From NCBI GenBank assembly GCA_947646015.1, contig CANSEY010000024.1, forward strand, positions 1 to 60,169: a stretch of 60,169 nt of DNA. The letters run 5' to 3'. A program made the translations under genes and the position numbers. The notes under the pieces were generated by a model. That model was not told where the DNA came from. It did not search any database and saw only the letters and a list, made by a program, of their open reading frames with translations. Source of the stretch: an uncultured Bacteroides sp. (GTDB lineage: Bacteria; Bacteroidota; Bacteroidia; Bacteroidales; Bacteroidaceae). Below, piece by piece: positions 10,444 to 36,353 of this stretch. Every line of letters starts with the position of its first letter. Position 1 is the first letter of the stretch.

Positions 10444-12636
10444 CTACAAAATCACGCGTTTATAGGGTTCTTTCTGATAATCTTTTATCTTGATTTTCCA
10501 CCAGTTCCAACTGCTTCCGTTAGTCGGCGAAATAATTCCCGCATCCGGATACTTGTTATAGAAATCAATCGTTTTTACCCTCTTGGGAAGTTTTGGAAAC
10601 ACAAGTGTCAGTAAAACAGAGCGCCCCTGACAACCTTCCACCCACAGCAATTTATTCATTTCAATGCCATGTGCTTCTTCCAGAACCGGATATTCATCAC
10701 CAGTCTTGCAATCTACTATACACAATCCTTTATTGATGACTAACCAATTACGATCATAATGAATAGGTACACTCAAAACAACCAACGTCTTATCAGGCAA
10801 AGTTTCAATCTTCTGAATCTGCGTTCTTCCACCATTGTGACGAGAAGAAACAGACAGCTGATTCGCATTAAGAGTCACTTCTTCCAATTTATCAGAACGT
10901 AGAGGTCGTCCCTCTCTGTCATATTCGGCTTGACGGACAGCTGTCGGCTGAAAATTATCAACTTTCAGATTATCCAACGTCCATGCGCCTCCATTGGGCG
11001 GCGTCAATCCTTTCTCTTCCGGAAAACAATCCCGGATACTTACTGTCTTTACTTTCCGGTCAAGGGGAGGAAATACAAGAGTAAATTCCAACATTTGCCC
11101 TTCTTGCCCCACAACCCAATAAACCCGGTTTAACTCAATCCCACGGGTAACCGAACGAATACGGTAAACATCCTTCGAATCTTCGTCAACGATGGACAAC
11201 CCCTTTTCAAATTGCAACCAATGCCTGTCATAATGTATTGGAATAGCCAAAGTAACACGGGTATCTTCTTTAGACCGTTCAATGAACCGCACATATGCAT
11301 TATTTTTACATGGAGCACGAGACAATACAACCTGATCAGCCCGTAAATCGATATCCACGGTATGATTTATATTTTGCTCCTGTGAAAAAGTTCCATCCGA
11401 GCTCTCTGCCGAAAGTGTATCCAGAGCCTTCGGTACAAAAATTGAGACTTGCGCAAGCGGCTGTCCGGCCCCGGATTGAACGATGTGAGCATCCCTTGAT
11501 TGTACATAGTGAACTATCTTTGGAGTATCCAGCAATAAAAAGTCTTTCTCATTACCGGCACTGTCTACTGTTACTTCGGGTAATACGACTTTCGGAGTTT
11601 CTGCCTTTATCGGCAAAGATACCATCGGCAATACGGGTTCGACCAGCACCGGATTTTCCGTAAAAGAGAATAAAGCCAGTACACCTATACATAAAGGAAG
11701 CAACGCTATCTTGCGTACCCCTGCCAAACGTTCTTTATATTGATGTTTCATCATGATAAATCGTTTTTTAATTAATGAATTATGAAAACCATTTGCAACC
11801 TTCGGGCTGTATCCCATCAACTCTTCGAATAAGATGCTTTGATATTCAAATAATTCAATCTCGCCGGAAAGCAAACAACGATCCACCTGAAATTCATGGA
11901 GGGCTCGCAGTTCACGTTTTACCAGCCAGACAAACGGATTAAACCAACATAAAATAGACAAACCTTCAATAAATAAAGCGTCCCGATAGTGATGATTACG
12001 AATATGCGCCTTTTCATGAAGCAGAACTACACGCAACACTTCGCCTTCTAATTTCCGGTTGATAAAAATCATCCGGTAGAACGAGAACGGCGAAACGACC
12101 TCATTGTTACGTACGATGCAAATCCCATCGGCATCCGTAGTACAAGTTCCCCAACGCTTTAAACGCCAGATCCGCACCATTTCGACCAATAAATGCACCA
12201 AAAGGATAAATACTCCCGAACCGTATACGATCCAGGCTATTTGCCAATAATTCCACGAAACATAAAAAGGTTCTTCGACTATTTCTTCTTCCGTCTGATG
12301 CGTGACAGCTTCATTCACATCCGTCAGCATTGCTGTTGCAAGCGTATCCGGTTGTATCCCATTATTATCTATTTGCATCAAAGAAACTTTATCCGTTTGC
12401 GCTTCCTGCGCCACCACTATCTGTTCCATTTTTACCGGTTTCACCACCTCTACCGGGTAAACCGGAATACGTAACACCGATACTGCCCCGGCCAACAACA
12501 CCGAAAACAGCAAATAATTCCGGCATTGGTTGAAGGGTGCTTTACGATCGAACAACAAGTAATAACACAGCCATAACACAAATGAAGCTCCTATGAAACG
12601 AAGAATAGCCCATTCGCTATAATCAAAATCGATCAT
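10444..12636 (-). CDS. BlaR1/MecR1-type M56 membrane peptidase with tandem C-terminal domain
   Basis: The 730-residue protein has membrane helices near residues 10-28, 40-58, 128-152 and 305-325. Its zinc-peptidase motif HEKAH (207-211) lies in a region typical of the M56 family (WFNPFVWLVKREL). In BlaR1 systems the peptidase cleaves the partner BlaI repressor or itself when a signal is sensed. The partner repressor gene is 3 bp upstream. Instead of a penicillin-binding domain, the C-terminal half carries two copies (about 445-565 and 603-722) of a domain marked by PIHYDRxWL, a Gly-Ile turn and TLVFPxL. The same domain begins the thioredoxin-fold protein at 34452. It probably senses something in the periplasm; what it senses is unknown. 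Confidence 0.88.
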   Translation of the reverse strand: MIDFDYSEWAILRFIGASFVLWLCYYLLFDRKAPFNQCRNYLLFSVLLAGAVSVLRIPVYPVEVVKPVKMEQIVVAQEAQTDKVSLMQIDNNGIQPDTLATAMLTDVNEAVTHQTEEEIVEEPFYVSWNYWQIAWIVYGSGVFILLVHLLVEMVRIWRLKRWGTCTTDADGICIVRNNEVVSPFSFYRMIFINRKLEGEVLRVVLLHEKAHIRNHHYRDALFIEGLSILCWFNPFVWLVKRELRALHEFQVDRCLLSGEIELFEYQSILFEELMGYSPKVANGFHNSLIKKRFIMMKHQYKERLAGVRKIALLPLCIGVLALFSFTENPVLVEPVLPMVSLPIKAETPKVVLPEVTVDSAGNEKDFLLLDTPKIVHYVQSRDAHIVQSGAGQPLAQVSIFVPKALDTLSAESSDGTFSQEQNINHTVDIDLRADQVVLSRAPCKNNAYVRFIERSKEDTRVTLAIPIHYDRHWLQFEKGLSIVDEDSKDVYRIRSVTRGIELNRVYWVVGQEGQMLEFTLVFPPLDRKVKTVSIRDCFPEEKGLTPPNGGAWTLDNLKVDNFQPTAVRQAEYDREGRPLRSDKLEEVTLNANQLSVSSRHNGGRTQIQKIETLPDKTLVVLSVPIHYDRNWLVINKGLCIVDCKTGDEYPVLEEAHGIEMNKLLWVEGCQGRSVLLTLVFPKLPKRVKTIDFYNKYPDAGIISPTNGSSWNWWKIKIKDYQKEPYKRVIL

Positions 12637-12639
12637 ACC

Positions 12640-13014
12640 TTATTCTTTTTTGTTTTCCTTCAGCATTTCAATCAGTTCGTCGATTTCCTGCACCGACATT
12701 TTCTCTTTTTTGGTAAAGAACGAAACCATTGCTTTCACCGAACCGCTAAAAAAGTTATCCACAACCCGATTCATAAAACGATTAGTATAACTCTCTTTTG
12801 AAACCAACGGATAATATTGATAATTCTTTCCGAAACTACGATAAGCTACAAAACCTTTGTTTTGCAACACACGCAACACGGTAGAAACTGTATTATACGC
12901 CGGACGTGGTTCTTCCAGCTCCTGCAAGATTTCATTCACAAAAGCATTTTCTTTCTGCCAAAGCACCTGCATGATCTGGAGTTCTGCTTTTGTCAATTCT
13001 TTCTGTTCATTCAT
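12640..13014 (-). CDS. BlaI/MecI/CopY-family transcriptional repressor
   Basis: A 124-residue winged-helix protein with the family pattern LTKAELQIMQVLWQKENAFV, then PAYNTVSTVLRVLQNKGFV as the recognition region. The C-terminal dimerisation helices contain FFTKKEKMSVQEIDELIEML. It is the first gene of a two-gene operon with the M56 peptidase, as in bla/mec regulators. A perfect 13-bp inverted repeat (13091-13124) overlaps its promoter and is the likely operator, implying autoregulation. Nothing here resembles a beta-lactamase, so the regulated function is unknown. Confidence 0.92.
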   Translation of the reverse strand: MNEQKELTKAELQIMQVLWQKENAFVNEILQELEEPRPAYNTVSTVLRVLQNKGFVAYRSFGKNYQYYPLVSKESYTNRFMNRVVDNFFSGSVKAMVSFFTKKEKMSVQEIDELIEMLKENKKE

Positions 13015-13228: not shown

Positions 13229-16200
13229 TTATTTCTTTGGCAGTTCTTTCAATAAACAATCTACTGCAGCTTTCAATTGTGCATCTTCACCCTTCAACGA
13301 AGCGGCAGGCTCGTTATAGATCAACACATCCGGTTCAAGTGTATGGTTTTCCAGATAATTACCCTGCATATCCATACAACCTACCTGCGGAATGCCAAAT
13401 ACAAGACTCGGATCGATCTGACGTTCCCACCACACAGCTGTCATAGTTCCGGCCACCGGAGTACCTACAAGTTTGCCGATACCTAATGTTTTGTAAACAT
13501 ATGGAGTACCATGTGCATTACTATAGTTATCTTCACAAACCAGCATACACGAGGGCTTCAGCCATTTATTGAACGGATCGCTACCAATATACTGTCCGCG
13601 GGGAACAAAACGCTGATATTCTTTTCCACTCAGAAGCGTCACCACATCATCGTGCAACCAACCACCTCCATTATGACGGACATCTACGACTACAGCTTCT
13701 TTATTACGGTAGCGTCCCAATAATTCAGAATACATCTTACGGAAACTTTGGCTGTCCATACCTTTAATATGCACATATCCCAAACGGCCACCCGACAATT
13801 CTTCTACTTTCTTGCGATTACGTTCTACCCAACGTTTATACAATAATTCACGCTGCGCGCCATAACTGATTGCTTTCACAGTCTCTTCAAAACGCTTTTT
13901 TGTAGCAGGATCATAGACAGAGAGCAGCACCTTGCGTCCTACTTTCCCCTCAAATAACGGGAAATAGTCTTCACCTTTCTTAATAAGAGTACCGTCCACT
14001 TTCTCGATAATGCAACCCGGCTTCACATCCGTCTTTTTCAATGTAAAGGGACCTTGCTCGATAATTTCTTTTATTTTTAACCCATCACCGTTATATGTAT
14101 CGTCATAGAATACACCCAGTGCTGCTGTTGCCAATGCACCTCCTGCACCGGAATAACGGGCTCCGGTATGTGAAGCGTTCAACTCACCAAGCATCTCACT
14201 CAACAGTTCGGCAAAATCGTAGTTATTATTGATATATGGCAAGAACTTTTCATAGCTCTTCTTATACAAAGGCCAATCTACCCCTTGCAGATCTTTCACA
14301 TAGAACTTATCATCGACCTGCTGCCACACATGATCGAAAATATAAGCACGTTCGCCACCCGGCTGATAATCAAAGAAAGATTCAAATGCAATCGGTGTTG
14401 TTTTACTACCGGCTATCTCAATTTTCTTCATACCCCCACCGGTACACATAAAGATGTTCTCACCTTTTTTATCGGGCAATAACGAACCGCCTCCAACACC
14501 TTTCAACAGAATCTTGGTAGAATTCTCTTTCAGATCATGTTCCCACAAATCATAACCGCTTTCAAAAGCTGCCAGATAATAGAGTTTATCACCTTTCGGT
14601 GTCAATACAGCATCACCCATGAAAGAAGAATTGACGGTCAGGCGTACAATACGGTCAAACCGATTGTCGAGATCGAACTTCAAAGGTTTCACCTCTTCTT
14701 TCTTTTCTTCATCCCCATCTTTCTTGTTTTTCTCTTTGGCGTCTTTTTTCTTATCGTCTTTTTTATTCTCTTTCTTTTTCTTTTCTGCTTTTTCTTTCTC
14801 GGCCTTTTCAGCTTTCTCTGCCTCTTCAAGCAAAGCAAGATCTTCCTTATTCATGCGAAAACGGTCGTAAGCATCTACATCGAAGAACATAATGTAAGCA
14901 TCGTACTGAGCGCCCCAACTACCATGACTGCGATAGCCTGCACGGTCACTGAACCACACCATTGCTTTACCACCCAACACCCATTTTGCATTTCCATCCG
15001 AATATCCACTCTCGGTCAGATTGTGCATTTCTCCTTTACCATCGGCATTCAGAAGCACAATGTCTTTATTATTCCAACCACCGATACCTATAAATTCAGA
15101 AAGAATCCATTTACTATCGGGACTCCACTCAAACCACTGATCACCATCACTGTAAGAATACTGATATTGTGCATCCATCACAGTACGTACCTTCTTAGTC
15201 TTGAGATTGATGACGCGGATTGCCGTACGATTTTCAAGAAATGCGATTTCTTTTCCGTCCGGACTATACTTCGGATTGAATGAAGCGATATCCGAATTAG
15301 TCAGACGTTCTTCTTTCAATTCCGTAGCATAAGTGAACTGTTTTTCGTCTTTCCGTACGATAGTCGAAGTATAGAGTTGCCAGAGTCCGCCACGTTCCGA
15401 AGCATACACCAGAGTGCGCCCATCGGGTGCAAAATCAATACCCCGTTCCTGGCAAGGTGTGTTCGTAACCTGTTTAGTAGTCTTATATTCCACCGAAGTG
15501 ACATACACATCTCCTCTCAGAATAAAAGCAACTTCCTTACCATCCGGAGAAACAGCCATCTCAGTAGCCCCACTGGTCTTAATCTGGCGAATCAGGTCTT
15601 TATCATTTCTATCGGATAGAATCTTTACAGAAACTTTCTGCGGTTTACCGCCGGGAGCCAACGTATAGATCTCACCATCGAAACCATAACAAAGGTTACC
15701 GTTGGAAGCCATACTGAGAAAGCGCACCGGATGTTGCTTGTGGTGAGTCACTTGCTTGGATGTATCCGAACCGGGAGTACGCTGGTAAACATTAAACGTT
15801 CCATTCTCTTCACTCAGATAGTAGAATGATTTTCCGTCCGGTGCCCACACCGGTTCACGGTCTTCACCAATGAAAGTAGTCTGTTTTTCGTAGCGCGGAG
15901 TCTGTCCCGACCGGAGCATCCAGATATCACGGGCAATCGGTGACTTCTGATGCTTGCGCCAGTAATCTTCGTATCCTTTCTTGTCCTGATAAAGAATTGT
16001 TCCTTCTTTATTTATAGAAATACATTCCATCGGCATGGACGAGAACATTACAGGACGTCCGCCCGAAACCGGAATCTGATATATCTGCTGAAATTGTCCG
16101 TTTGAAGGGAATCCGGCATCTTCGGTAGAAGGCATGATATCGGCAGTAAATAAAATATGTCCGGCATCAGTAAAAGCAACCGGAGTTTCGCCCCCCGAAA

Positions 16201-16516
16201 ATGTTGTCAAACGGCGAGGCTCTCCACCGTCTTTCGACACAATAAATACGTCCATACTTCCCATGCGGTCGGAAGCAAAAGCAATCTGCTTACTATCAGG
16301 ACTCCAAATCGGTGTCGTATCAAAAGCTGGATTGGTAGTGATTTGCGTAGCCTTGCCACCGGATACGGGGACTGTAAAAATGTCACCTTTGTAGGTGAAT
16401 GCAATGGTAGTTCCATCGGGAGAGATAGCACAATGACGCATCCACAACGGATTCTCTTGTGCCCAAAGTGCTCCGGCAAACAGAAGGGCCACAGCACTCA
16501 TGAAGAGTTTTTTCAT
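13229..16516 (-). CDS. Tricorn-like S41 family peptidase
   Basis: A 1095-residue protein with a signal peptide (residues 1-19, cleavage after LWAQ). Repeated SPDG/SPDSK motifs (for example CAISPDGTTIAFTYKGD) mark PD40 beta-propeller blades over about 20-560. A Lys/Glu-rich linker (about 565-620) follows, then a second propeller-like part, a PDZ-like region (about 830-900, PGCIIEKVDGTLIKKGEDY), and a C-terminal S41 domain. The S41 part contains LGYVHIKGM, AVVVDVRHNGGGW and the probable nucleophile region CEDNYSNAHG. Tricorn-type proteases degrade peptides. With a signal peptide this one would act in the periplasm or be surface-linked. No obvious promoter match lies directly upstream. Confidence 0.9.
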   Translation of the reverse strand: MKKLFMSAVALLFAGALWAQENPLWMRHCAISPDGTTIAFTYKGDIFTVPVSGGKATQITTNPAFDTTPIWSPDSKQIAFASDRMGSMDVFIVSKDGGEPRRLTTFSGGETPVAFTDAGHILFTADIMPSTEDAGFPSNGQFQQIYQIPVSGGRPVMFSSMPMECISINKEGTILYQDKKGYEDYWRKHQKSPIARDIWMLRSGQTPRYEKQTTFIGEDREPVWAPDGKSFYYLSEENGTFNVYQRTPGSDTSKQVTHHKQHPVRFLSMASNGNLCYGFDGEIYTLAPGGKPQKVSVKILSDRNDKDLIRQIKTSGATEMAVSPDGKEVAFILRGDVYVTSVEYKTTKQVTNTPCQERGIDFAPDGRTLVYASERGGLWQLYTSTIVRKDEKQFTYATELKEERLTNSDIASFNPKYSPDGKEIAFLENRTAIRVINLKTKKVRTVMDAQYQYSYSDGDQWFEWSPDSKWILSEFIGIGGWNNKDIVLLNADGKGEMHNLTESGYSDGNAKWVLGGKAMVWFSDRAGYRSHGSWGAQYDAYIMFFDVDAYDRFRMNKEDLALLEEAEKAEKAEKEKAEKKKKENKKDDKKKDAKEKNKKDGDEEKKEEVKPLKFDLDNRFDRIVRLTVNSSFMGDAVLTPKGDKLYYLAAFESGYDLWEHDLKENSTKILLKGVGGGSLLPDKKGENIFMCTGGGMKKIEIAGSKTTPIAFESFFDYQPGGERAYIFDHVWQQVDDKFYVKDLQGVDWPLYKKSYEKFLPYINNNYDFAELLSEMLGELNASHTGARYSGAGGALATAALGVFYDDTYNGDGLKIKEIIEQGPFTLKKTDVKPGCIIEKVDGTLIKKGEDYFPLFEGKVGRKVLLSVYDPATKKRFEETVKAISYGAQRELLYKRWVERNRKKVEELSGGRLGYVHIKGMDSQSFRKMYSELLGRYRNKEAVVVDVRHNGGGWLHDDVVTLLSGKEYQRFVPRGQYIGSDPFNKWLKPSCMLVCEDNYSNAHGTPYVYKTLGIGKLVGTPVAGTMTAVWWERQIDPSLVFGIPQVGCMDMQGNYLENHTLEPDVLIYNEPAASLKGEDAQLKAAVDCLLKELPKK

Positions 16517-32231: not shown

Positions 32232-32262
32232 TTTGTTTAGTTACGACCGTTCCGTAGCTTTG
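32232..32262 (+). promoter_or_regulatory. Promoter of the second blaI-like gene
   Basis: TTTG (32232-32235), a 19-bp spacer and TAGCTTTG (32255-32262) fit the consensus exactly. An imperfect TACG/CGTA dyad lies in the spacer and could be an operator. Confidence 0.7.
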
Positions 32263-32289: not shown

Positions 32290-32655
32290 ATGGAAAAGTT
32301 GACAATGCAAGAAGAAGAAGTGATGATCTACATTTGGGAACTGGAAAGTTGCTATGTGAAAGACATCGTTGCCAAGTTTGAGCAACCTACTCCTCCCTAC
32401 ACCACGGTGGCTTCCATCGTGAAGAATCTCGAACGGAAAAAATATGTAAAGGCACAGCGTGTAGGAAACACGTATCTGTACACTCCGTCTATTAAAGAAA
32501 GCGAATACAAACGAAGTTTCATGAGTGGAGTCGTACGGAACTACTTTGAAAACTCTTACAAAGAGATGGTTTCTTTCTTCGCCAAAGATCAAAAGATATC
32601 GACCAACGACCTGAAGGAAATCATCGACATGATTGAGAAAGGACAAGAAAAATAA
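32290..32655 (+). CDS. BlaI/MecI-family transcriptional repressor (second copy)
   Basis: A 121-residue winged-helix repressor: LTMQEEEVMIYIWELESCYV, then PPYTTVASIVKNLERKKYV as the recognition region and a dimerisation tail (FFAKDQKISTNDLKEIIDMI). It heads a three-gene unit with an M56 peptidase 20 bp downstream and a thioredoxin-fold protein. Paired BlaI and M56 genes suggest derepression by proteolysis, as in bla/mec regulators. Its recognition helix differs clearly from the copy at 12640, so the two probably bind different operators. Confidence 0.92.
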   Translation: MEKLTMQEEEVMIYIWELESCYVKDIVAKFEQPTPPYTTVASIVKNLERKKYVKAQRVGNTYLYTPSIKESEYKRSFMSGVVRNYFENSYKEMVSFFAKDQKISTNDLKEIIDMIEKGQEK

Positions 32656-32675: not shown

Positions 32676-34409
32676 ATGACTCCCGAACTGGCATATTTTC
32701 TGAAAATAAATATAGCAATTGCTTTATTCTACGCCTTCTATCGGTTGTTTTTCTACAGAGACACCTTCTTCCAATGGCGAAGGACAGCTTTGCTTTGCTT
32801 CCTTGTCATTTCTCCGCTCTATCCGGTACTGAACATTCAGGAATGGATCAGATCGCACGAACCGATGGTAGCAATGGTCGATTTGTATGCAACAATCGTA
32901 TTGCCCGAAATCGAAATAACTCCCGAGGTTAGGGCTGCGGACTGGCAAAGTATCATTTTATCTACAGTAAATATCATCTATTGGTCAGGGGTCACTTTAC
33001 TTTTAGTACGTTTCTTCGCTCAACTTGCCAGTATTCTACGGTTGCGTCTTCGTTGCCGGAAAGATCAGATAGAAGGAATACCCGTCTATCTGCTGGATAA
33101 AGAAAGTGGTCCTTTTTCTTTTTTTCACTGGATTTTCATTTATCCGCAGGCACACCCGCAGAACGAATTAAGTGAAATCCTGACTCACGAAGGAACACAT
33201 GCCCGCCAAAGACATTCCATAGATGTGATTATCAGTGAGCTAATGTGTATTGCCTGCTGGTTCAATCCTTTCATGTGGTTGATGAAACGGGAAGTACGGA
33301 ACAATCTGGAATACATGGCGGATAATCGGGTGCTGGAAGCCGGACATGATTCAAAGTCCTATCAATATCATTTGTTGGGACTGGCACATCAAAAGAGCGC
33401 GATCACCCTTTCCAACAGCTTCAATGTGTTGCCGCTGAAGAACCGTATCACGATGATGAACAAAAAGAGAACCAAGGAGATAGGACGAACCAAGTATCTG
33501 TTATTTATCCCCTTGGCTCTTGCTTTGATGATAGTAAGCAACATCGAAGCAGTGGCACGTACCACTAAAAGTATTGCACAGGAAGTGATGCAAACCGTAG
33601 AAGAACAGATGGAACCCGAAAACGCTGTTGCTGTTAAGGAAAGCACTTCCTCTCCCCAGGCAGCCAATCATATTTCACAACCTCAAGAGAGCGGCATAGC
33701 CGAACAGCCCGCCCAAGAAGAAAGCCGGGAGCAAATCGTATTCGAGGTTGTGGAGAAAATGCCGGAGTTTCCGGGTGGCGTAAGGAATATGAATCATTTC
33801 ATCAACAGCCATCTTCGTTATCCGGTGATCGCCCAGGAAAACGGAACACAAGGCCAAGTCATCGCACAGTTCGTAATTCAGGCAGACGGTACACTCTCTG
33901 ACCTGAAAATAGTGAAAAGCGTAGACCCGTTGCTGGATGCCGAAGCCATGCGCGTGATAAAAGAGATGCCTAAATGGCAACCCGGGAAACAAAGAGGAAT
34001 AGCTGTTGCCACCAGGGTCACAGTGCCGATACGATTCCGACTGATGGATTCCGATTCCGCTCCGTCAACAGACAGCAATAAGAATCAGGAGAATACCATA
34101 TTCGATGTGGTTGAACGAGCACCGGAATTCCCCGGCGGAATGGAAGCCTGCCTGAAATATATGTATAAAAATATAAAATATCCGGCAGTCGCAATGGAAG
34201 CGGGAATACAAGGACAAGTTGTCATACAAATAGTCATTGACAAGGACGGGAAAATACATGATCCCAAGATAGTTCGGGGAGTATCGCCGGAACTGAATGC
34301 CGAAGCGATCCGCGTGATAAGCAACATGCCTCAGTGGATACCCGGAAAACAAAAGGGAAAGAACGTAGCAACCCGATTCACACTTCCGGTCCGCTTCCGT
34401 CTGGCTTAG
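32676..34409 (+). CDS. M56 membrane peptidase fused to two TonB C-terminal domains
   Basis: The 577-residue protein begins with membrane helices (about 8-28, 36-55, 93-118) and the zinc motif HEGTH (171-175) in a classical M56 setting (CWFNPFMWLMKREVRNNLEYMADN). A fourth helix (about 274-292) leads to a low-complexity periplasmic linker and two tandem TonB-type domains (about 361-456 and 481-577). Each has PEFPGG, RYP or KYP, GxQGQVIxQ and MPxWxPGKQ. TonB domains contact outer-membrane receptors, so this protein may link receptor state to BlaI repressor control. It is a BlaR1-like sensor with no penicillin-binding domain. Confidence 0.92.
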   Translation: MTPELAYFLKINIAIALFYAFYRLFFYRDTFFQWRRTALLCFLVISPLYPVLNIQEWIRSHEPMVAMVDLYATIVLPEIEITPEVRAADWQSIILSTVNIIYWSGVTLLLVRFFAQLASILRLRLRCRKDQIEGIPVYLLDKESGPFSFFHWIFIYPQAHPQNELSEILTHEGTHARQRHSIDVIISELMCIACWFNPFMWLMKREVRNNLEYMADNRVLEAGHDSKSYQYHLLGLAHQKSAITLSNSFNVLPLKNRITMMNKKRTKEIGRTKYLLFIPLALALMIVSNIEAVARTTKSIAQEVMQTVEEQMEPENAVAVKESTSSPQAANHISQPQESGIAEQPAQEESREQIVFEVVEKMPEFPGGVRNMNHFINSHLRYPVIAQENGTQGQVIAQFVIQADGTLSDLKIVKSVDPLLDAEAMRVIKEMPKWQPGKQRGIAVATRVTVPIRFRLMDSDSAPSTDSNKNQENTIFDVVERAPEFPGGMEACLKYMYKNIKYPAVAMEAGIQGQVVIQIVIDKDGKIHDPKIVRGVSPELNAEAIRVISNMPQWIPGKQKGKNVATRFTLPVRFRLA

Positions 34410-34451: not shown

Positions 34452-36353
34452 ATGAAGAAAATCACATTTATTGCTATTCTTTTGCTGTGTATCTGTAGCC
34501 TCACAAAAGCTAAAGAGAAAGTTATAGAGCAACCCCCATTCATCGCCTGGACCAGTACCTCTATTCAAGTGGACAAAGTTGTTCTCAGCGACACAGCTAC
34601 GGTGCTTTATATCAAAGCATTCTATCATCCCAAGCAATGGATTAGGATTTCCGGACAAAGTTTCCTGAAGGACAATAACGGAGAAACTTACGTTCTGCGT
34701 TCGGGAATCGGCATCAAGCCTGACACGGAATTCTGGATGCCCGAATCCGGAGAAGGAGAATTCCGCCTGGTATTCCCACCGATCCCGACCTCGGCTACTT
34801 CGATCGATTTTTCAGAAGGAGACAATGTTCAAGGTGCTTTCAAGATATGGGGCATTCAGCTGAAAGGCAAAGCCCTCCCGGAACTTTTGTTACCTCAAGA
34901 AGCCATCGTACATAAAATCGACATCAACGATGAATTGCCCGAGCCCAAAATTGAATATAAAGACGCTACTATAAAAGGACGGATTCTGGATTATCGCCCG
35001 GGACTCGTCAGCAAAATTGTACCGATTATATTCGATCCGGTAAAAGGTGCCTACGAAAGCGAAGAAGTAAAAATAAACAATGACGGTACATTCGTCACGA
35101 GAGTGAAAGTGCCGACCACCACATCGGCTGCCATCCGTCTTTTTGGTAAAATGATAACTTTCTATGCCGTACCGGGCGAAGAGAGCAGCGTCATTATCAA
35201 TACCCGTGAACTTTGCCGCCAGCAATCCAAGTTTCATAAGGATGACAAACCTTATGGCGAAGCCGTTTATTTCGGCGGAACATTAGCCGGCCTGTCACAG
35301 GAATATTCGAACTGCACCCTAAAAACCTCCATTCTAAATGATTACCGCCAATTATTCAAGGATGTAGCAGGAATGGACGCCGGCGCTTACAAAGACTTTA
35401 TCTATGGAAAGCGGGCCAATCTCCTGGCATCCATAGAGAAAGCTCCAATCAGCAAGGCTCTCAAGGCAGTGTTGGGCAATCAAGTGGATGCCGAGGCTGC
35501 CCAAGCCATCTCCCTGACGGAAATGGTTATCAAGCAAGCCTACACCATGGAGCACAAAATGAGCAAAGAAGAGGCCAGGGAATACTTTAACACGGCTCAG
35601 ATAGAACTGCCTGAAAATTATTATGCGAATGCTTTCAGACCGCTCGCTTCCATCAACACCATGGCAGCACTCTATAATTCCAAGCTCTCCGAACTGATTC
35701 CGTATTATCTACGCCGCCGAACCGATGAACTGACCAAAGCCTGGGGAACCGACAAAGGAATCTACTTCGATATCAACAAAGCAGGCGAACTCTATTCGTC
35801 CATCAAAGAGTTCACCCCGCTGACTGCCGAACAGGAAGTGATACTTGCCACTCTTCCACCTGCCTGTCAGAATGAAGTGCGGGACGCCAACAACCAACTG
35901 CTGAAGACCCTTGAGGCCAATAAAAAGAAGACAGGGTTCACCATCAACGAAGTTGGTGACGTCAGCAATGAAGAGCTGTTTTCATCCATCATCTCTAAGT
36001 ACCGGGGCAAAGTGATTCTGGTAGACTTCTGGGCAACCTGGTGCGGCCCCTGTCGCATGGCCAATAAAGCAATGTTGCCACTGAAGGAAGAGTTGAAAGG
36101 AAAGGACATCGTTTACCTTTACATTACCGGCGAAACCTCCCCCCTGAAAACATGGGAGAACATGATTCCGGATATCCACGGTGAGCATTTCCGTTTAACG
36201 GATGCCCAATGGAGTTTCTTAGGTGATAAATTCGACATAAGGGGCGTACCCACCTATCTCATCATCGATCGGGAAGGAAATGTCAAACACCAAAAGACAG
36301 GATTCCCGGGTGTAGCCCAAATAAAAGAGGAATTGATGAAAGTATATGATTAA
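34452..36353 (+). CDS. TlpA-like thioredoxin-fold protein with M56-shared N-terminal domain
   Basis: The 633-residue protein has a signal peptide (about residues 1-20). An N-terminal domain (about 30-140) matches the tandem C-terminal domain of the M56 protein at 10444-12636 (FYHPKQWIRI, GETYVLRSGIGI, FRLVFPPIPTSATSIDF). A middle region (about 150-480) resembles the DUF4369-like part of Bacteroides thiol proteins. The C-terminal thioredoxin domain (about 495-633) has the redox motif WCGPC in VDFWATWCGPCRM and a cis-Pro in RGVPTYL. It probably reduces disulfides or carries out related redox chemistry in the periplasm. The gene follows the BlaI/M56-TonB pair by 42 bp and is likely under the same control. 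Confidence 0.88.
   Translation: MKKITFIAILLLCICSLTKAKEKVIEQPPFIAWTSTSIQVDKVVLSDTATVLYIKAFYHPKQWIRISGQSFLKDNNGETYVLRSGIGIKPDTEFWMPESGEGEFRLVFPPIPTSATSIDFSEGDNVQGAFKIWGIQLKGKALPELLLPQEAIVHKIDINDELPEPKIEYKDATIKGRILDYRPGLVSKIVPIIFDPVKGAYESEEVKINNDGTFVTRVKVPTTTSAAIRLFGKMITFYAVPGEESSVIINTRELCRQQSKFHKDDKPYGEAVYFGGTLAGLSQEYSNCTLKTSILNDYRQLFKDVAGMDAGAYKDFIYGKRANLLASIEKAPISKALKAVLGNQVDAEAAQAISLTEMVIKQAYTMEHKMSKEEAREYFNTAQIELPENYYANAFRPLASINTMAALYNSKLSELIPYYLRRRTDELTKAWGTDKGIYFDINKAGELYSSIKEFTPLTAEQEVILATLPPACQNEVRDANNQLLKTLEANKKKTGFTINEVGDVSNEELFSSIISKYRGKVILVDFWATWCGPCRMANKAMLPLKEELKGKDIVYLYITGETSPLKTWENMIPDIHGEHFRLTDAQWSFLGDKFDIRGVPTYLIIDREGNVKHQKTGFPGVAQIKEELMKVYD

What the first reader, a model, noticed from the sequence alone, without database searches (positions are those of the whole stretch)
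10444..11330. A tandem domain in one M56 sensor matches the N-terminus of a redox protein beside the other M56 sensor
The C-terminal half of the M56 protein at 10444-12636 holds two copies (about residues 445-565 and 603-722) of a domain with PIHYDRxWL, a D-x-Y/GDEY turn, a GI/GIE turn, a Trp-containing loop, TLVFPxL and a terminal W...LKV/IKI. Residues 30-140 of the thioredoxin-fold protein at 34452 carry the same pattern (FYHPKQWIRI, GETYVL, GIGI, FRLVFPPIP, SIDF, FKIWGIQLK). The similarity is read directly from the protein sequences. Two BlaI/M56 loci 20 kb apart thus share an envelope domain that I cannot name. It could be the sensing module that replaces the penicillin-binding domain of BlaR1. 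The shared domain may mark one signalling family in which it is either part of the sensor or an output protein.
Basis: partly seen in the sequence, partly recalled or inferred. Interest (0 to 1): 0.72.

Follow-up and report, generated by a model that had tools for sequence, protein, structure and literature searches.

The report
Shared β-sandwich domain in envelope sensor
A gut Bacteroides membrane protease that probably switches genes on carries, where its best-known relatives carry an antibiotic-sensing part, two copies of an unnamed immunoglobulin-like domain that also caps a redox protein encoded beside a second such protease; the resemblance is real, but the domain is a widely used envelope building block rather than a mark of one signalling family.

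Summary
The M56 protein at 10444-12636 ends in two copies (37% identical) of a ~130-residue domain; residues ~22-148 of the TlpA-like protein at 34452 are homologous (profile-profile E 4e-10; a profile without M56 rows finds the tandem M56 tails at E 2e-7 to 8e-10). Predicted models are all-beta, nearest to Ig-like sandwiches (moderate confidence); no Pfam or NCBIfam model names the domain. The M56 protein has the BlaR1 layout (HExxH...ExxxD, BlaI beside it) with the tandem domain in the sensor position and no SxxK in the tail; both copies are under as strong purifying selection as the protease. Conserved dyads at Bacteroides-type promoters precede both blaI genes. Best reading: two self-repressed BlaI/M56 systems; in locus 1 the tandem domain is the periplasmic input module, in locus 2 one copy is the docking cap of a co-transcribed TlpA output enzyme. 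'One signalling family' is only partly supported: the domain is in 6 of 92 M56 proteins, also in OmpA-, kinase- and many TlpA-type proteins, and M56 and TlpA copies fall in separate clades. Of 81 BlaI/M56 loci, 15 have a thioredoxin-fold neighbour; in 11 it carries the domain (9 are one orthologous operon). Ligand and function are untested.

The parts
10444..12636 (-). M56-1: BlaR1-like membrane metalloprotease, 730 aa, with tandem C-terminal domain
   Evidence: PF05569 41.9 bits over cut-off 31; HEKAH at 207, EFQVD at 248, hydrophobic segments 11-29, 41-59, 133-151, 221-239, 304-322
10951..11343 (-). domain copy 1 (residues ~432-562)
   Evidence: dN/dS 0.08 vs B. fragilis
10468..10872 (-). 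domain copy 2 (residues ~589-723)
   Evidence: dN/dS 0.06 vs B. fragilis; AF2 all-beta model pLDDT 68.9, pTM 0.70
12640..13014 (-). BlaI-1 repressor, 124 aa
   Evidence: PF03965 122 bits
13092..13123 (.). candidate BlaI-1 operator: CTATAAATATAG-N8-CTATATTTATAG, followed within a few bases by a TAnnTTTG element
   Evidence: alignment of 5 upstream regions: right half identical in 5 of 5, left half in 3 of 5; only place of the paired pattern in the genome held; half-site with up to 2 mismatches 7 times in the window vs 1.5 expected, 4 of the 7 being here
32242..32262 (+). candidate BlaI-2 operator (TACGA-N5-TCGTA type, one mismatch in the window) overlapping a TAnnTTTG element
   Evidence: TACGA and CGTA halves and TAnnTTTG kept in 10 of 10 aligned upstream regions; one exact match to the typed pattern in the own genome, two more with 2 mismatches
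32290..32655 (+). BlaI-2 repressor, 121 aa
   Evidence: PF03965 112 bits
32676..34409 (+). M56-2: M56 protease with two TonB_C stretches, 577 aa
   Evidence: PF05569 50.5 bits, PF03544 146 bits; HEGTH at 171, EYMAD at 212
34452..36353 (+). TlpA-like thioredoxin-fold protein, 633 aa, hydrophobic N-terminus, WCGPC
   Evidence: PF13905 41.3 bits; CGPC at 531
34515..34895 (+). the same domain at the N-terminus of the TlpA-like protein (residues ~22-148)
   Evidence: pN 0.030 over residues 1-130 vs 0.10-0.125 for the middle of the protein; AF2 model pLDDT 64, pTM 0.60

Best explanation
The shared feature is a homologous, Pfam-unnamed, Ig-like β-sandwich domain of Bacteroidota envelope proteins (homology shown by sequence; fold inferred from moderate-confidence models). 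In locus 1, BlaI-1 represses its own blaI-M56 operon at the dyad upstream of blaI. M56-1 sits in the inner membrane with its zinc protease facing the cytoplasm and its two fused β-sandwiches in the periplasm, where BlaR1 has its penicillin-binding sensor. A periplasmic partner (most likely another envelope protein or a cell-wall or outer-membrane component, not a β-lactam) binds the tandem domain, the protease cuts BlaI-1 and the operon is derepressed. In locus 2 the M56 has TonB_C domains instead, and a single copy of the domain sits on a co-transcribed TlpA thiol oxidoreductase, which I read as an output enzyme docked by that domain to its envelope client. Shown: homology, gene order, motifs, purifying selection, conserved dyads. 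Inferred: topology, co-transcription, operators, BlaI cleavage, ligand binding, output role.
For: Homology: and reciprocal genome searches. BlaR1-type layout: PF05569 and PF03965 neighbours, HExxH + ExxxD signature and hydrophobic segments (77; signature and topology as in PMC9834060, passages), no SxxK in the tail. Constraint on the tail: dN/dS 0.06-0.08 for both copies and the segment between them, equal to the protease (0.08), against 0.22 for the linker and 0.36 for the first periplasmic loop. The blaI-M56(tandem domain) pair is kept in B. fragilis, B. bouchesdurhonensis and B. faecalis, and a single-domain version next to blaI in another family, G059. Candidate operators: 50, 51, 56, 57. 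TlpA link: blaI-M56-TlpA(domain) order in 8 loci including the window, other orders in 3; 12 of 43 places within 5 kb of blaI, one of them an M56 tail; in 11 of 15 BlaI/M56 loci with a thioredoxin-fold neighbour, of 81 loci, the neighbour carries the domain, while these 61 genomes hold 662 Thioredoxin_8 matches (30) against 43 domain places; 0 of the 150 listed Thioredoxin_8 hits lie within 5 kb of blaI (31). Fold: both models all-beta, with overlapping lists of solved neighbours.
Confidence: 0.57

Rival explanations
1. Generic module: the domain is an all-purpose envelope spacer or adhesive β-sandwich. Its presence in the M56 tail and in the TlpA of a second M56 locus reflects its general abundance, with no common signal or ligand.
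For: Many architectures: TlpA N- and C-terminal, OmpA, kinase-TPR, DUF2059, stand-alone; separate clades for M56 and TlpA copies; 30 of 42 non-M56 places are not within 10 kb of a strong BlaI hit; two genomes carry the TlpA without any BlaI hit.
Against: The three copies found in this genome (held 74.7% complete; 15 of 23 first-look candidates scored) all lie at its BlaI/M56 loci; 11 of 15 BlaI/M56 loci with a thioredoxin-fold neighbour have one with the domain, far above the share of Thioredoxin_8 matches that could carry it (at most 43 places against 662 matches; 16, 30); strong constraint on both M56 copies and on the TlpA copy.
Confidence: 0.28
2. Tether, not sensor: the tail anchors the protease to the cell wall or outer membrane, as TonB_C tails may do in other Bacteroidales M56 proteins, and the input is read elsewhere (first periplasmic loop or membrane segments).
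For: 58 of 85 M56 tails match TonB_C and 19 match Plug; the domain is fused to OmpA-family proteins in other genomes (69).
Against: A tether is itself a way of sensing envelope state; the first periplasmic loop is the least constrained part (dN/dS 0.36).
Confidence: 0.12
3. No homology: convergent β-sandwich with look-alike strands.
For: Pairwise identity is only 19-24% between M56 and TlpA copies; the small secreted rows L010-L012 against TlpA-type profile comparison was weak (8.7%).
Against: Profile E 3.9e-10 to 1e-12 with the same motif order; an HMM without M56 rows hits the tandem M56 tails at up to 8e-10, and the other 86 M56 proteins are not hit.
Confidence: 0.03

Closest known systems
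BlaR1/MecR1-BlaI/MecI β-lactam sensing
   Same: Membrane M56 gluzincin with HExxH...ExxxD, BlaI repressor gene beside it, C-terminal extramembrane module, dyad upstream of blaI (PMC9834060 passages).
   Different: No penicillin-binding domain and no SxxK in the tail; tandem Ig-like domain instead; the operon as read holds only blaI and the M56 gene.
Bacteroidales M56-TonB_C proteins (such as M56-2 here)
   Same: Same membrane protease part, same BlaI neighbour, tail in the same place.
   Different: TonB_C in 58 of 85 tails; the present domain in 6 of 92 M56 proteins.
TlpA/ResA-type thioredoxin-fold proteins
   Same: Thioredoxin_8 and CGPC in the protein at 34452.
   Different: Carries the extra N-terminal domain and a long middle region.
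Secreted Ig-like proteins YjhA (3cfu), MPT63 (1lmi), YcdA (4r4g), YxkC (9a4z) and the B. anthracis protein 3fbq; Pfam DUF5643
   Different: Sequence below every Pfam cut-off; that 3fbq is a DUF4179/DUF5643 protein and YjhA/YxkC are DUF4352 proteins is recalled, not from a call.

Membership tests
Peptidase M56 (PF05569) | score over Pfam cut-off (31 bits) | tested here: met
   41.9 bits for M56-1, 50.5 for M56-2
BlaR1-type antirepressor | HExxH + ExxxD gluzincin signature | tested here: met
   HEKAH 207, EFQVD 248; signature as in PMC9834060
BlaR1-type antirepressor | adjacent BlaI/MecI repressor gene | tested here: met
   PF03965 122 bits, 3 bases from the M56 gene
BlaR1-type antirepressor | four membrane helices plus re-entrant segment, tail outside | tested here: inconclusive
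   hydropathy segments at the expected places; no topology predictor or experiment
BlaR1 β-lactam sensor proper | penicillin-binding sensor domain with SxxK | tested here: not met
   no Pfam hit in the tail, no SxxK after the one at residue 287
BlaR1-type antirepressor | cleaves its BlaI on stimulus | not testable with these tools
   needs biochemistry
TlpA/ResA-like thiol oxidoreductase | thioredoxin fold with CxxC and export signal | tested here: met
   PF13905 41.3 bits, CGPC 531, hydrophobic N-terminus by hydropathy only; activity not tested
DUF5643 (PF18705) | score over cut-off (34 bits) | tested here: not met
   15.9, 18.5 and 14.5 bits in P0002, L046, L050; no listed match for P0001
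DUF4352/telokin-like Ig sandwich | same fold as YjhA/MPT63 | tested here: inconclusive

The most novel reading that the evidence does not exclude
A new sensor class of BlaI/M56 systems that reads periplasmic thiol-redox or envelope-folding state: the two fused β-sandwiches of M56-1 hold the only two tail cysteines kept in all 5 sequences compared (C537 in copy 1, C669 in copy 2, at non-equivalent sites), which could form a disulfide between the copies, while the paralogous locus makes a TlpA oxidoreductase capped by the same domain as its effector.
Probability: 0.1. Interest if true: 0.75.

Novelty: new variant of a known kind. Interest (0 to 1): 0.42.

Why it matters
BlaR1 is the textbook case of signal transfer through an M56 protease, but none of the 85 M56 tails scanned here from related genomes showed a penicillin-binding domain, and I found no paper on what such systems sense in Bacteroides (searches listed below). 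Defining a compact, conserved tail domain gives a concrete handle (a deletable input module and a candidate operator to report on) to find the stimulus, and the same domain on a neighbouring redox enzyme offers a testable link to envelope thiol quality control.

Tried and rejected
Naming the domain: Pfam, NCBIfam and PDB sequence searches gave nothing over cut-off for it; a weak PDB sequence hit to 3d4e (E 0.024 over 43 profile positions) was not taken as evidence. Foldseek's top rows for the M56 model were mostly cupins with TM-scores near 0.2, set aside as poor alignments. Adaptin-ear and pilin neighbours were read as a common arrangement only.

Chance similarity and convergence: rejected. 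Recent exchange of the domain between the two loci of this window: rejected, since M56 copies group with the small secreted proteins L010-L012, not with TlpA copies. β-Lactam sensing: not favoured, no PBP domain or SxxK in the tail.

A first neighbour count (54 loci, 12 with a thioredoxin-fold neighbour, 10 with the domain) leaned towards the domain, because I had refetched the short M56 loci only where a domain-bearing TlpA lay near. I fetched the others and recounted over 81 BlaI/M56 clusters (15 and 11); that count is used above. In one search I used the 91 strong BlaI rows and left out 17 weak ones (E 2e-6 to 1e-3).

Literature: (open-licence PMC only). I saw search listings, and passages of PMC12578637, PMC10470040, PMC9834060 and PMC11575231. 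No paper on the function of a Bacteroides BlaI/M56 system turned up in these searches. In PMC12578637 none of the 12 passages shown (of 13) concerned BlaI or M56; in PMC11575231 the BlaI hit was an author name; PMC10470040 only lists a P. gingivalis BlaI-family gene and a neighbouring M56 gene in tables of haemin-dependent methylation and expression.

Viral contigs held no relative of the TlpA protein, so no deeper permitted alignment for the TlpA model was available. One search read some loci on the wrong strand and was redone.

Full report
What is there. The window (contig C24 of a 4.9 Mb genome, held 74.7% complete) has two BlaI/M56 loci. Locus 1, minus strand: BlaI-1 (12640-13014) then M56-1 (10444-12636), 730 aa. 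Locus 2, plus strand: BlaI-2 (32290-32655), M56-2 with two TonB_C stretches (32676-34409), and a TlpA-like thioredoxin-fold protein of 633 aa (34452-36353) starting 42 bases after M56-2. The scores for M56, Penicillinase_R, TonB_C and Thioredoxin_8 pass Pfam's cut-offs.

The observation. The two halves of the M56-1 tail match at 37% identity over 131 aa (100 bits), and each matches the TlpA N-terminus at about 31 bits in a pairwise test. With relatives added, 7 M56-type copies against 22 TlpA-type copies give hhalign probability 96.7 and E 3.9e-10; adding 3 copies from small secreted proteins (L010-L012) on one side and 6 from long proteins that I read as TlpA-like (their C-terminal ends were not read in full) on the other, 97.8 and 1e-12. 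A profile with no M56 row hits the tandem tails at per-domain E between 2e-7 and 8e-10 among 2835 ORFs, and the single-domain tail L009 at 4e-4; the other 86 of 92 distinct M56 proteins are hit by none of the three domain profiles at E <= 0.01. One comparison went the other way: the 3 small secreted rows against the TlpA set reached only 8.7% and E 0.0039. I take homology as established.

Distribution and architecture. In 61 genomes (own and relatives) the TlpA copy finds 43 places in 25 genomes and the M56 tail 16 places in 12 genomes. Across a sample of 296 genomes of the phylum, a 19-row profile finds it in 20, a lower bound since at most 15 first-look candidates a genome were scored. Partners seen: TlpA-type proteins with the domain N-terminal or C-terminal, a Ser/Thr-kinase-TPR protein (L045), a protein with a sub-threshold TPR match (L046), DUF2059 (L012 by Pfam, L010 by resemblance; L011 matches no Pfam family), OmpA-family proteins with a sub-threshold carboxypeptidase-regulatory-like match in other families of the class (L154, L171, L173), and short stand-alone proteins. 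The M56 tandem form was found in four named records: B. fragilis Q1F2 and S82, B. bouchesdurhonensis and B. faecalis; a single-copy M56 form lies in another family, G059. Of 92 distinct M56 proteins collected, 6 rows carry the domain; of 85 tails of at least 40 aa (7 shorter ones left out), 58 match TonB_C, 19 Plug, 15 CarboxypepD_reg, and none a penicillin-binding family at E <= 0.001.

Phylogeny. A 32-row tree puts the M56 copies and those of L010-L012 on one side and TlpA, kinase and TPR-type copies on the other (100/99). Copy 1 sequences of window, B. fragilis and G030 group together (99/97), copy 2 sequences likewise but less firmly (84/66). So the tandem duplication probably predates these species, and the resemblance between the two loci of the window is an old one, not a recent exchange.

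Link to BlaI/M56. Of the 43 places, 12 are within 5 kb of one of 91 strong BlaI hits (17 weak ones left out), one of the 12 being an M56 tail; 9 of the other 11 are orthologues of the window's locus 2. Gene orders: blaI-M56(TonB_C)-TlpA in the window and L087, L095, L096, L138-L141; TlpA upstream of blaI-M56 with one ORF between in L090; blaI-TlpA-M56 in L132; blaI-thioredoxin-TlpA-M56 in L137; in L100 they are ~8 kb apart, and L142, L143, L144 show no BlaI; L144 lies near a contig start, while the genomes of L142 (G031) and L143 (G005) have no BlaI hit at all. Of 81 distinct BlaI+M56 clusters, 15 have a thioredoxin-fold ORF within 1.5 kb and in 11 of these it carries the domain; 4 clusters (window, L082, L177, L207) have an M56 with the domain and no thioredoxin neighbour within 1.5 kb. 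The thioredoxin queries were parts of domain-bearing TlpA proteins, which favours such hits. As controls, the 61 genomes hold 662 Thioredoxin_8 matches, of which the best 150 are listed, and 0 of those 150 lie within 5 kb of BlaI. The link is real but rests mainly on one operon family plus two divergent cases.

Working parts. M56-1 has HEKAH at 207 and EFQVD at 248 and hydrophobic segments at 11-29, 41-59, 133-151, 221-239 and 304-322, which fits the BlaR1 layout of four helices, a re-entrant segment and an extramembrane C-terminal sensor (PMC9834060, passages read). The tail has no SxxK. Between the window and B. fragilis, dN/dS is 0.08 for the protease, 0.08 and 0.06 for the two copies, 0.06 for the 26 residues joining them, 0.22 for the linker and 0.36 for the first periplasmic loop. 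In the TlpA protein residues 1-130 (pN 0.030) are more conserved than the middle region (0.10-0.125), though less than the thioredoxin part (0.004). Two tail cysteines, C537 in copy 1 and C669 in copy 2, are kept in all 5 sequences; no other tail cysteine is.

Regulation. Upstream of blaI-1 lies CTATAAATATAG-N8-CTATATTTATAG; the right half is identical in 5 of 5 sequences, the left half identical in 3 and altered in 2, and a TAnnTTTG element follows within a few bases. It is the only place of its kind in the genome held. Upstream of blaI-2 a TACGA-N5-TCGTA dyad (one mismatch in the window) overlaps a TAnnTTTG element; TACGA, CGTA and TAnnTTTG are kept in 10 of 10 aligned sequences. That TAnnTTTG is the Bacteroides -7 consensus, and that BlaI sites resemble TACA-N2-TGTA, are recalled. 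Autoregulation by each BlaI at its own, different site is inferred.

Mechanism and verdict. The best-supported picture is two separate self-repressed BlaI/M56 systems. In the first, the tandem β-sandwich is the periplasmic input module in the place of the penicillin-binding domain; in the second, the M56 has TonB_C tails and the domain sits on the neighbouring TlpA, where I read it as a docking cap of an output enzyme. Homology, order, motifs and constraint are shown; sensing, cleavage, ligand, co-transcription and output are inferred.

Noticed in passing
window 10444-12636 against L081: Synonymous divergence from B. fragilis is uneven along M56-1: pS 0.08-0.47 over residues 1-351, 0.49-0.81 over residues 352-730. 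Local recombination of the protease half or codon constraint could explain it.
   Followed up: partly
window 34452-36353 against L095: The thioredoxin part of the TlpA protein has low synonymous divergence (pS 0.17) compared with 0.45-0.63 elsewhere in the gene.
   Followed up: no
L085 (G059:C11): One BlaI gene followed by three M56-TonB_C genes in a row and a further TonB_C-like ORF.
   Followed up: no
L045:691-3069: A predicted Ser/Thr kinase with the domain between a hydrophobic stretch and TPR repeats.
   Followed up: no
L154, L171, L173: Proteins with an N-terminal copy of the domain and a C-terminal OmpA domain in other families of the class.
   Followed up: no
L176 (G021:C1): The DUF2059 protein with the domain lies less than 100 bases upstream of a thioredoxin-fold gene on the same strand, another tie between the domain and thioredoxin-fold proteins.
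   Followed up: no
L153, L155-L160, L163-L165, L167: Short proteins (open frames of about 134-155 aa) that match the domain profile at E 6e-10 to 2e-5 and often lack an obvious signal peptide by eye; they may be another branch or chance matches.
   Followed up: no
window 13229-16516: A Tricorn-like S41 protease with β-propeller repeats lies directly upstream of blaI-1 on the same strand, also in L082.
   Followed up: no
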